Assembly: GCA_937928615.1 (NCBI GenBank)
Contig: CALFWI010000182.1
Coordinates: 1 to 32,145 of the forward strand
DNA length: 32,145 nucleotides
Direction of reading: 5' to 3'
Source of the DNA: an uncultured Saprospiraceae bacterium
GTDB taxonomy: Bacteria; Bacteroidota; Bacteroidia; Chitinophagales; Saprospiraceae
Below, in pieces: positions 22,830 through 26,017 of the stretch; position 1 is the stretch's first letter, and each line of letters starts with the position of its first letter. The notes below the pieces were generated by a model. The model was given only the letters and a program-made list of their open reading frames with translations. It did no database searches and was not told the origin of the DNA. Made by a program: the position numbers and the translations under genes.

Positions 22830-22884
22830 TAGTAAAGTCTTACTAATTATTATTTGAATAATTAGTAAGACTTTACTATATTTG
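22830..22884 (+). promoter_or_regulatory. tetR promoter with embedded inverted-repeat operators
   Basis: TAGTAAAGTCTTACTAATTATT (22830-22851) - ATTTG - AATAATTAGTAAGACTTTACTA (22857-22878), 22-bp perfect arms. TTTG (22853-22856), 20-nt spacer, TATATTTG (22877-22884). Confidence 0.8.
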
Positions 22885-23528: not shown

Positions 23529-24650
23529 ATGGATGTAATTATTGCAGAGAACTATATAGTTTTAGTCCTAGGAGTATTAATATTGTTTGCACTGGGCGAC
23601 ATTATCGTTGGATCATATCGTCGAGGAAAGCGTAGAAAAGATGACCTAGCACAAGAGGCGGTAGGATTTGTTCAATTGTACACCTTAGTACAACCGGCAG
23701 TAGCGGGGCTTGCTTTTCTACTGATGGGCTTGCTTTTCCCTAATTCAGAAAATGAATTCTTAGGAACCACTCTTTGGATTGCTCTACCTTTATATTTATT
23801 AGTAGACGATTGTTCTCAATATTGGTATCATCGAAAAGCACATGAATGGGAATGGCTGTGGAAATTGCATCGTCCGCATCACGCTACACCAGAAATGGGG
23901 GCTTTTGCGACTTATCGGAATGCTACTTTATACTATGCTTTATTACCAAATTTGTGGTGGGGGGGTATTTTTACTTATTTCGGTTTTGGTTTAGCGGTAA
24001 TCATAGGTTTAGTGCTAAAAAATATTGTGGTTATCGGCGCTCATGGCAGTATTAAATGGGATAGATTTTTATATGAAAATAAATGGTTGCATCCAGTAGC
24101 TTGGGTCGTCGAAAGATTTATTTCTACGCCTGCCACTCATTTTGCACATCATGGAAAATCAGCTAAAGATGGTATAAGCGACCCTAATGGTAACTTTAGT
24201 AATATGTTTTTCTTCTGGGATATTTTATTTGGTACAGCGATTATTACTCGCCAATATCCTGAAGAGATTGGCTTAGATAACGACCCTAACGACCCTTGGT
24301 ATGCCCATTTATATTATCCAATTATTAAGTCGAAGCAAGAAGGGAGTGAAATATCAGCAGGTTTCAAAAAACAGTCTTACGTAAGTAATGAACCGCTTAA
24401 AATAGCATTGGAGGTAGGCAATCATTTATATTGCGTCTGTGGAATGAGTAAGGATAATCCATTTTGTAATGGATCGCATCATGGAACAGGTAAAAAGCCT
24501 ATTTTGTTTGAGGTTAAGAAAAAACGAACAATGTCTTATTGTACCTGTAAAATGACGAAGACGCCACCTTATTGTGATATGTCGCATGAGCAAATGGATA
24601 TGCCGAGTGCAGGAAATATTAAAAAGAAGAAAGAAACAACTAAAGTGTAA
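23529..24650 (+). CDS. Fatty acid hydroxylase/sterol desaturase superfamily membrane protein fused to two C-terminal CDGSH iron-sulfur motifs
   Basis: His motifs YHRKAHEW, HRPHH, HFAHHGK. C-terminal CVCGMSKDNPFCNGSHHG and CTCKMTKTPPYCDMSHEQ fit CxCxx(S/T)xxxPxCxx(S)H. Confidence 0.9.
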   Translation: MDVIIAENYIVLVLGVLILFALGDIIVGSYRRGKRRKDDLAQEAVGFVQLYTLVQPAVAGLAFLLMGLLFPNSENEFLGTTLWIALPLYLLVDDCSQYWYHRKAHEWEWLWKLHRPHHATPEMGAFATYRNATLYYALLPNLWWGGIFTYFGFGLAVIIGLVLKNIVVIGAHGSIKWDRFLYENKWLHPVAWVVERFISTPATHFAHHGKSAKDGISDPNGNFSNMFFFWDILFGTAIITRQYPEEIGLDNDPNDPWYAHLYYPIIKSKQEGSEISAGFKKQSYVSNEPLKIALEVGNHLYCVCGMSKDNPFCNGSHHGTGKKPILFEVKKKRTMSYCTCKMTKTPPYCDMSHEQMDMPSAGNIKKKKETTKV

Positions 24651-24692: not shown

Positions 24693-24741
24693 TAATGTTC
24701 AAATTGTTCGCTAGAATCGAATAATTTGAACATTATTTTTT
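24693..24741 (+). terminator. Intrinsic terminator after tetR-hydroxylase operon
   Basis: TAATGTTCAAATT (24693-24705) / AATTTGAACATTA (24723-24735) followed by TTTTTT. Confidence 0.8.
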
Positions 24742-24787
24742 GTGGAGTAATCCTATTCATCTTGAATTATCCTGTCATCTTGTAATT

Positions 24788-26017
24788 ATGTTTTTAAAAT
24801 TCTTCTACGGTCTAAGAACACACGGCATTAAAGTAAGTCTGCACGAATACTTGACCTTAATGCAAGCATTAAAGTTAGAGTTTACAGATTATACTTTAGA
24901 TGATTTTTACTATTTGTGTAAAACTATCATGGTTAAACAAGAGGTTCAACTAGATCGTTTTGACCGAGTTTTTGGACATTATTTTAAAGGCTTAGAATTA
25001 ATTCCAGATGATTTTTTTGTCTCCAAAATTCCTGAGGATTGGTTGAAAGGGGAGCTTAGAAAAATACTATCTGAGCAAGAGATGGAGGAGATTGAAAAGA
25101 TGGGCGGTTTAGATGCTTTGATGCAGAAGTTCCGAGATTTAATGGCAGAACAAAGAAAGCAACATGAAGGCGGCAATAAATGGATAGGCACAGGTGGTTC
25201 GTCTGCATTTGGCGCTTTTGGTTTTAATCCAGAAGGTTTTAGAATTGGGCAAGACAAAAGTCGAAATAATAAAGCCATTAAGGTTTGGGACAAACGAGAA
25301 TTTAGAAATTTAGATGATAAGATTGAGTTGAATACCCGTAGTATCAAAATGATTTTGAAACGGCTAAGGCATTTGACGAGAGAAGGGCTACCTACAGAAT
25401 TGGATATTGATGACACCATCAAAAATACGTCTAAGAATGCAGGATTGTTGGATATAAAGATTGTTCCGTCTAAGAAAAATAGAGTAAAGGTTTTATTATT
25501 GATGGACGTAGGTGGGACGATGGATGAACATATTGATACTTGTCAAAAAATATTCTCTGCTGCTAAACATGAATTTAAGCATCTAGAATTTTTCTACTTT
25601 CATAATTGTTTGTACGAATCTGTTTGGAAAGATAATCGTCGTCGATTTTCTGAACGCATGCCGACTTTGGAACTTATCAATAAGTACAATAAAGATTATA
25701 AATTGATTTTTATTGGAGACGCTACCATGTCGCCTTATGAGATTTTTTATTCTGGTGGAAGTGTAGAACATCATAATGATGAAGCGGGGATTAAATGGTT
25801 AAAGCGGATGAAAGACCATTTTTCTAGTATGATTTGGATTAATCCAACCGCAGAATATGAATGGAGTTTTTATGAAACGATTCCTATGTTGCGGGAATTT
25901 TCAGGCAATCGCATGTTTCCACTGACTTTAGATGGTTTGACACAAGGCATGAAATGTTTGCGAAATCCAAAAAAGACTTATGATAATAATGCTTGGGATT
26001 TGGAAGATTTTAAGTAA
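24788..26017 (+). CDS. CoxE-like von Willebrand factor A domain protein
   Basis: MFLKFFYGLRTHGIKVSLHEYLTLMQAL N-terminus and MIDAS-like VLLLMDVGGTMDEH. ATG at 24788 preferred over the track start. Confidence 0.85.
   Translation: MFLKFFYGLRTHGIKVSLHEYLTLMQALKLEFTDYTLDDFYYLCKTIMVKQEVQLDRFDRVFGHYFKGLELIPDDFFVSKIPEDWLKGELRKILSEQEMEEIEKMGGLDALMQKFRDLMAEQRKQHEGGNKWIGTGGSSAFGAFGFNPEGFRIGQDKSRNNKAIKVWDKREFRNLDDKIELNTRSIKMILKRLRHLTREGLPTELDIDDTIKNTSKNAGLLDIKIVPSKKNRVKVLLLMDVGGTMDEHIDTCQKIFSAAKHEFKHLEFFYFHNCLYESVWKDNRRRFSERMPTLELINKYNKDYKLIFIGDATMSPYEIFYSGGSVEHHNDEAGIKWLKRMKDHFSSMIWINPTAEYEWSFYETIPMLREFSGNRMFPLTLDGLTQGMKCLRNPKKTYDNNAWDLEDFK

What the first reader, a model, noticed from the sequence alone, without database searches (positions are those of the whole stretch)
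23529..24650. Membrane fatty-acid hydroxylase fused to a tandem CDGSH iron-sulfur module
The di-iron His-box hydroxylase/desaturase domain is followed in the same ORF by two CxC-x2-(S/T)-x3-P-x-C-x2-S-H motifs, the 2Fe-2S ligand pattern of CDGSH/mitoNEET-type proteins. This suggests a self-contained electron-transfer partner or redox sensor for a lipid or carotenoid hydroxylase. It is co-transcribed with its own TetR (2-nt gap), so a small inducible lipid-modification operon is plausible. I cannot establish how widespread this architecture is.
Basis: partly seen in the sequence, partly recalled or inferred. Interest (0 to 1): 0.6.

Follow-up and report, generated by a model that had tools for sequence, protein, structure and literature searches.

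The report
Membrane hydroxylase with built-in NEET module
A bacterial membrane enzyme that probably adds oxygen to fatty molecules carries, in the same protein chain, a pair of mitoNEET-like iron-sulfur centres that most likely feed it electrons; the arrangement is real, conserved in over 100 related genes and apparently undescribed, but its chemistry is untested.

Summary
ORF 23529-24650 (+, 373 aa) is a PF04116 fatty-acid-hydroxylase-type di-iron membrane domain followed by a tandem type-6 (CISD3/MmCISD-like) CDGSH module. It is not an assembly accident. The host, a Saprospiraceae MAG, has three paralogous fusions, and I collected 102 non-identical fused proteins. In these all nine conserved histidines and, with one single-residue exception, all eight cluster ligands are invariant. 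AlphaFold2 gives one well-defined chain (pLDDT 91.8, pTM 0.88) whose C-terminus matches solved type-6 NEET structures. The fusion is concentrated in Saprospiraceae (40 of 199 genomes); a related clade lacks the module. The TetR gene 2 nt upstream has a conserved palindromic operator (TAGTA-N6-TACTA) abutting a Bacteroidota -7 box, and a strong terminator follows the fusion gene, so this is a two-gene, probably autoregulated operon. Across lineages the neighbours include alcohol- and aldehyde-oxidising enzymes. Most likely it is a lipid/alkyl-chain hydroxylase with a built-in [2Fe-2S] electron relay, working like AlkB-rubredoxin or cytochrome-b5 hydroxylase fusions but with a NEET module as partner. 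Electron transfer and substrate are inferred, not shown. No paper found in the held library describes the architecture.

The parts
22830..22845 (.). Candidate TetR operator O1, TAGTAA-AGTC-TTACTA; with O2 it forms a perfect 22-bp inverted repeat (22830-22851 / 22857-22878)
   Evidence: TAGTA-N6-TACTA conserved upstream of the TetR, or in the TetR/fusion intergenic region, in all nine TetR-linked loci with sequence there. Binding untested
22863..22878 (.). Candidate TetR operator O2, TAGTAA-GACT-TTACTA, overlapping the -7 box
22877..22884 (+). Candidate -7 promoter box TATATTTG
   Evidence: sequence read; matches the TAnnTTTG consensus of flavobacterial sigma-A promoters (PMC9723704); same box after the operator in L037 and L038
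22906..23526 (+). TetR-family regulator, 206 aa, TTG start conserved in orthologues
   Evidence: PF00440 4e-10, PF13972 4e-13; start codon context in L037-L039
23529..24650 (+). FA_hydroxylase-CDGSH2 fusion protein, 373 aa
23790..24236 (+). PF04116 di-iron hydroxylase domain (residues 88-236)
23829..23843 (+). Histidine box 1, HRKAH (H101, H105)
   Evidence: both His in 102/102 fused and 37/37 unfused homologues
23868..23882 (+). Histidine box 2, HRPHH (H114, H117, H118)
   Evidence: all three His invariant
24138..24152 (+). Histidine box 3, HFAHH (H204, H207, H208)
   Evidence: all three His invariant
24387..24590 (+). Tandem type-6 CDGSH/NEET module (residues 287-354)
   Evidence: phmmer to 3tbn and 6avj; Foldseek to 3tbn E 3.4e-6 and 6avj E 1e-5
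24432..24479 (+). Cluster motif 1, CVCGMSKDNPFCNGSH (C302, C304, C313, H317)
   Evidence: ligands in 102/102 fused homologues
24540..24587 (+). Cluster motif 2, CTCKMTKTPPYCDMSH (C338, C340, C349, H353)
   Evidence: Cys in 102/102, His in 101/102; spacer to motif 1 is 20 residues in every complete tandem
24693..24741 (+). Intrinsic terminator: 18-bp stem, 7-nt loop, T run
   Evidence: MFE z-score -5.7

Best explanation
The gene encodes an integral-membrane, non-haem di-iron hydroxylase of the PF04116 superfamily with its own electron relay attached. The chain appears not to cross the membrane again after the third histidine box, so the C-terminal tandem NEET module should sit on the same (cytosolic) side as the di-iron site. 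A reductase encoded elsewhere, probably flavin-dependent, would reduce the two Cys3His [2Fe-2S] clusters, which would pass electrons one at a time to the di-iron centre for O2 activation and hydroxylation of a lipid or other alkyl-chain substrate. The alcohol or aldehyde product would then be processed by dehydrogenases or oxidases, encoded nearby in some lineages. The TetR, binding TAGTA-N6-TACTA operators that abut the promoter, would repress its own two-gene operon until a substrate-like ligand appears. Shown by computation: architecture, ligand conservation, predicted type-6 NEET fold, conserved operator, terminator. Inferred: cluster binding, electron flow, substrate, induction.
For: Both domains over curated cut-offs. 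All nine His invariant in 102 fused and 37 unfused homologues; cluster ligands invariant in the fused ones but for one residue in one sequence; motif spacer always 20. Confident single-chain model, pTM 0.88, C-terminus matching 3tbn and 6avj. Precedents for the same logic: AlkB fused to rubredoxin or to ferredoxin plus ferredoxin reductase, desaturases fused to cytochrome b5 (PMC8918992; AlkB-AlkG cryo-EM, PMC10113152). mitoNEET clusters have a midpoint potential near 0 mV (PMC9737848) and mediate NADH oxidation through flavin reductase (PMC6006223). Neighbours of the fusion include SDR, GMC, ALDH and flavin oxidoreductases. Operator and promoter; terminator.
Against: No biochemical test. Unfused homologues with all nine histidines exist, so the NEET module is not essential to every member of the family. 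No reductase gene is fixed next to the fusion. NEET proteins also act as cluster-transfer proteins and sensors. Neighbour counts include related genomes and were not tested against a background set.
Confidence: 0.6

Rival explanations
1. The NEET module is a redox, oxygen or pH sensor that switches the hydroxylase on or off or controls its stability, while electrons come from a separate ferredoxin or cytochrome.
For: NEET clusters are labile and redox-active (PMC6006223); unfused homologues must use another donor.
Against: Two complete clusters are kept in essentially every fused copy, whereas a switch would need only one; fusion of carriers to di-iron membrane enzymes is a known route of electron supply.
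Confidence: 0.17
2. The NEET module stores or delivers iron (or clusters) for assembly and repair of the di-iron site.
For: mitoNEET transfers clusters to apo-proteins (PMC9737848).
Against: The known transfers quoted are of [2Fe-2S] clusters to Fe-S proteins, not of iron to His-ligated di-iron sites; the unfused sister clade keeps the complete set of histidines without it.
Confidence: 0.12
3. The module is mainly structural: an oligomerisation or docking element whose clusters are incidental.
For: The module is predicted with high confidence in the same chain; some homologues do without it.
Against: Strict conservation of all ligands; type-6 CISDs are monomers with an internal pseudo-dyad (PMC3174974), so they are not expected to dimerise.
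Confidence: 0.08
4. The fusion is an assembly or frameshift artefact.
For: The window comes from a draft MAG, 55% complete.
Against: The same fusion occurs in 102 non-identical proteins from many assemblies, including a 7.5-Mb contig (G086) and records not labelled MAG (L161, L210).
Confidence: 0.005

Closest known systems
Type-6 CISD proteins (MmCISD, PDB 3tbn; human CISD3/MiNT, PDB 6avj)
   Same: Tandem Cys3His motifs about 20 residues apart in one chain; sequence and predicted fold match
   Different: Those are small stand-alone proteins; here the module is the tail of a membrane hydroxylase
Type-5 CISD (type-6 module fused to a glutamate-synthase FMN-binding domain, Lin et al. 2011, PMC3174974)
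   Same: Precedent for a type-6 module fused to a redox enzyme domain
   Different: Partner there is a C-terminal flavin domain, here an N-terminal di-iron membrane hydroxylase; the seven types of that paper include no hydroxylase fusion
AlkB-rubredoxin (FtAlkB-AlkG) and ferredoxin-reductase/ferredoxin-AlkB fusions (PMC10113152, PMC8918992)
   Same: Membrane di-iron hydroxylase with its electron carrier in the same chain; alcohol and aldehyde oxidation genes nearby in some systems
   Different: The carrier is a NEET module; the catalytic domain matches PF04116 and not the desaturase/AlkB model; no fused reductase
Cytochrome-b5-fused fatty-acid hydroxylases and desaturases (FA2H/Scs7 type)
   Same: Fatty-acid-hydroxylase-type di-iron chemistry with a fused one-electron carrier (membership of FA2H in PF04116 is from general knowledge)
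   Different: Haem b5 carrier, eukaryotic; here [2Fe-2S] Cys3His
Ornithine-lipid hydroxylase OlsE (NF052566)
   Same: Best named bacterial relative of the catalytic domain, E 1.5e-8
   Different: 34 bits against a cut-off of 475, so not an OlsE

Membership tests
PF04116 fatty acid hydroxylase superfamily | Profile match over the curated cut-off | tested here: met
   78.2 bits against 31
PF04116 fatty acid hydroxylase superfamily | HX3H, HX2HH, HX2HH histidine boxes | tested here: met
   H101/105, H114/117/118, H204/207/208 plus H172, all invariant
PF04116 fatty acid hydroxylase superfamily | Bound di-iron and hydroxylase activity | not testable with these tools
   needs purified protein
Type-6 CISD | Two Cys3His motifs about 20 residues apart in one chain | tested here: met
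   spacer 20 in all complete tandems; ligands C302/C304/C313/H317 and C338/C340/C349/H353
Type-6 CISD | NEET fold | tested here: met
   AF2 model matches 3tbn (E 3.4e-6, TM-score by target length 0.77) and 6avj
Type-6 CISD | Stand-alone protein without further domain | tested here: not met
   preceded by PF04116 in the same ORF; hence a type-6-like module in a new fusion
Type-6 CISD | Binds [2Fe-2S] | not testable with these tools
   needs UV-vis/EPR
[quoted passage not shown]
   no such Pfam match
Alkane monooxygenase AlkB | Match to the membrane desaturase/AlkB profile | tested here: not met
   the only Pfam matches at E 0.01 are PF04116 and PF09360
OlsE (NF052566) | Score over the equivalog cut-off | tested here: not met
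   34.3 against 475 bits
TetR family regulator | TetR_N DNA-binding domain | tested here: met
   PF00440 39.7 bits against 24
TetR family regulator | Palindromic operator at its own promoter | tested here: met
   TAGTA-N6-TACTA in nine of nine TetR-linked loci with upstream sequence; binding itself untested

The most novel reading that the evidence does not exclude
A NEET (CDGSH) domain acts as the dedicated, covalently attached redox partner of a membrane di-iron monooxygenase. That would add a further carrier type beside rubredoxin, ferredoxin and cytochrome b5, and would give a NEET protein a defined enzymatic electron acceptor.
Probability: 0.5. Interest if true: 0.65.

Novelty: new variant of a known kind. 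Interest (0 to 1): 0.5.

Why it matters
What NEET/CISD proteins hand their electrons or clusters to is still debated. A natural fusion that puts the NEET module beside a di-iron oxygenase names a candidate acceptor and makes the question testable in one polypeptide. If the relay works, it is also a new kind of self-supplied membrane hydroxylase.

Tried and rejected
Rosetta-stone test: the unfused homologues have no CDGSH gene among their near neighbours, and co-occurrence with a solo CDGSH elsewhere in the genome is not clearly enriched (my count: 14 of 19 genomes with the unfused form against 10 of 20 without a close homologue).

Apparent losses of the module that were artefacts: G157 (L095) runs off its contig; UBA7328 (L088/L227) keeps a CDGSH remnant in another frame.

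Carotenoid role: no supporting neighbour; the Lycopene_cycl matches are weak side hits to FAD domains.

A wide TetR regulon: the 16-mer TAGTAA-N4-TTACTA occurs 0-8 times per genus genome against 0-3 for the reversed control, but most sites outside the fusion loci are far from gene starts or inside ORFs, so only the TetR operon and, more tentatively, a second fusion paralogue are claimed. A site before a molybdenum-oxidase 2Fe-2S subunit (G000:C75) is only partly conserved in orthologues and is left as a lead.

Foldseek against PDB gave no significant match for the catalytic domain. A neighbour cluster first taken for TetR (c0) proved to be a cNMP-binding, Crp/Fnr-like protein. Literature searches for the two domains together returned nothing.

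Full report
What is there. The ORF at 23529-24650 encodes 373 aa with a PF04116 hydroxylase domain (residues 88-236) and two PF09360 CDGSH stretches. The closest solved sequences to the C-terminus are the type-6 NEET proteins 3tbn and CISD3 6avj. The pentapeptides read CNGSH and CDMSH, but all Cys3His ligands are present.

Not an accident. The genome (G000, 3.7 Mb, 55% complete) has two more fusions of the same kind, on C284 and C179. Fused homologues, one of them cut by a contig end, occur in all eight other genomes of the genus searched. In an even draw of 199 family genomes, 61 have a strong homologue; from that table I count 40 with a fused form, 20 with only the shorter form and one (G157) cut by a contig end. 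In a phylum-wide draw of 396 genomes, only the window's own genome had fused forms among matches at E <= 1e-30; the other strong matches lacked the module. A scan of named genomes, which kept the 80 best of 562 relatives, gave fusions mainly in Saprospiraceae, and also in Lacihabitans, Flavobacteriaceae including Candidatus Arcticimaribacter, a Flammeovirgaceae MAG, and MAGs labelled Acidobacteriota, Gammaproteobacteria, Calditrichota and Verrucomicrobiota. The Acidobacteriota MAGs group with each other, as do the Gammaproteobacteria MAGs. That suggests horizontal transfer, but misbinning is not excluded.

Conservation and evolution. In 102 fused sequences all nine conserved histidines are invariant; seven cluster ligands are present in 102/102 and the motif-2 His in 101/102. 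In 37 sequences classed as unfused, all nine histidines are kept and the ligands are absent. The motif spacer is 20 residues in every complete tandem. On a tree of the catalytic domain the fused state is strongly clustered: 5 changes against a shuffled mean of 33, with 2 forced by well-supported branches. Two of the apparent losses are artefacts. A clade of about 20 Saprospiraceae homologues (mostly 293 aa) and a set from another family of the class really lack the module. In a 67-column tree the fused CDGSH modules separate from the few solo type-6 rows included (97/85). A single ancestral fusion with later loss fits, but the root is not fixed and the solo sample is small.

Structure. AlphaFold2 on a 72-sequence alignment gave pLDDT 91.8 and pTM 0.88. 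The C-terminal module matches 3tbn and 6avj by Foldseek. After the helix ending at residue 197 there is no helix long enough to cross the membrane, so the third His box and the NEET module should lie on the same side (inference).

Operon and control. The TetR stop lies 2 nt before the fusion's ATG. Upstream of the TetR is a perfect 22-bp inverted repeat, 22830-22851 / 22857-22878, whose arms each contain TAGTAA-N4-TTACTA. The promoter-proximal copy overlaps a TATATTTG box that matches the flavobacterial -7 consensus TAnnTTTG (PMC9723704). TAGTA-N6-TACTA is conserved in all nine TetR-linked loci with sequence there, including four distant ones in which the TetR is divergent. The same 16-mer lies 23-34 bp upstream of a second fusion paralogue in three genus genomes, just after a TAnnTTTG-like box, so the TetR may act there too; the own-genome copy on C179 starts near a contig end and shows no site. 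An 18-bp-stem terminator follows the fusion gene, so the conserved VWA/CoxE-like gene downstream is probably a separate unit.

Functional context. Of 82 upstream neighbours, 16 match a cNMP-binding (Crp/Fnr-like) domain and 12 match TetR_N, so about one in three fusions has a regulator next door. Among 80 downstream neighbours, oxidation and acyl-metabolism families recur: SDR 6, flavin/NAD(P) oxidoreductases 6, thiolase/KASIII up to 5, GMC 3, ALDH 3. These counts include related genomes and were not tested against a background. ALDH genes lie beside a TetR divergent from the fusion in L114, L116, L119 and L125, and directly upstream of the fusion in L118. In L056 (G006) a molybdopterin-binding subunit lies directly upstream of the second fusion paralogue, with the matching 2Fe-2S subunit just before it. 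This suggests a product that is oxidised further to an aldehyde or acid. It is a pattern, not proof.

Interpretation and novelty. Lin et al. 2011 describe seven CISD types, including a type-6 module fused to a flavin domain (type 5), but no hydroxylase fusion (PMC3174974). Searches for both domains together returned no paper, although only an open-access library was searched and sequence databases may hold the architecture unremarked. Membrane di-iron enzymes fused to rubredoxin, ferredoxin or cytochrome b5 are known (PMC8918992, PMC10113152), so this is a new variant of a known kind. The near-0 mV potential of mitoNEET (PMC9737848) makes a relay role plausible on energetic grounds. Electron transfer, substrate and TetR ligand remain to be tested.

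Noticed in passing
window 24740-26017: A VWA/CoxE-like protein gene (PF05762, just under its cut-off) follows the fusion in the same order in five genomes of the genus, but a strong terminator separates the two.
   Followed up: partly
G000:C179:157-1233 (L043) and G000:C284:3629-4702 (L042): Two further hydroxylase-CDGSH fusions in the same genome; the C284 copy is followed 9 nt later by a DUF4442-length (155 aa) gene.
   Followed up: partly
L054:2688-2703, L056:5977-5992, L057:5207-5222: The TetR operator 16-mer lies 23-34 bp upstream of a second fusion paralogue, so the regulator may act in trans.
   Followed up: yes
L293:3470-3485 (G000:C75) and L294:168-183 (G000:C171): The same 16-mer occurs 41 bp before a 2Fe-2S (Fer2_2) subunit gene of a molybdenum-oxidase type, and near the end of a related Mo-subunit gene; conservation in orthologues is only partial.
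   Followed up: partly
L044, L046, L047, L049, L055, L112, L113, L117, L130, L135, L139, L140: In other lineages a Crp/Fnr-like cNMP-binding protein of about 200 aa takes the place of the TetR directly upstream of the fusion.
   Followed up: partly
L229-L241: Homologues (about 42% identity) in other families of the class lack CDGSH and end in a short variable tail.
   Followed up: partly
L176, L181, L190, L212 and L179, L196, L200: Fusions on contigs of MAGs labelled Gammaproteobacteria and Acidobacteriota; each set groups together on the tree, which hints at horizontal transfer, though misbinning is possible.
   Followed up: partly
L088:3951-4883 / L227:4890-5822: A Saprospiraceae UBA7328 copy whose CDGSH region is frameshifted: a decaying gene or a sequencing error.
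   Followed up: yes
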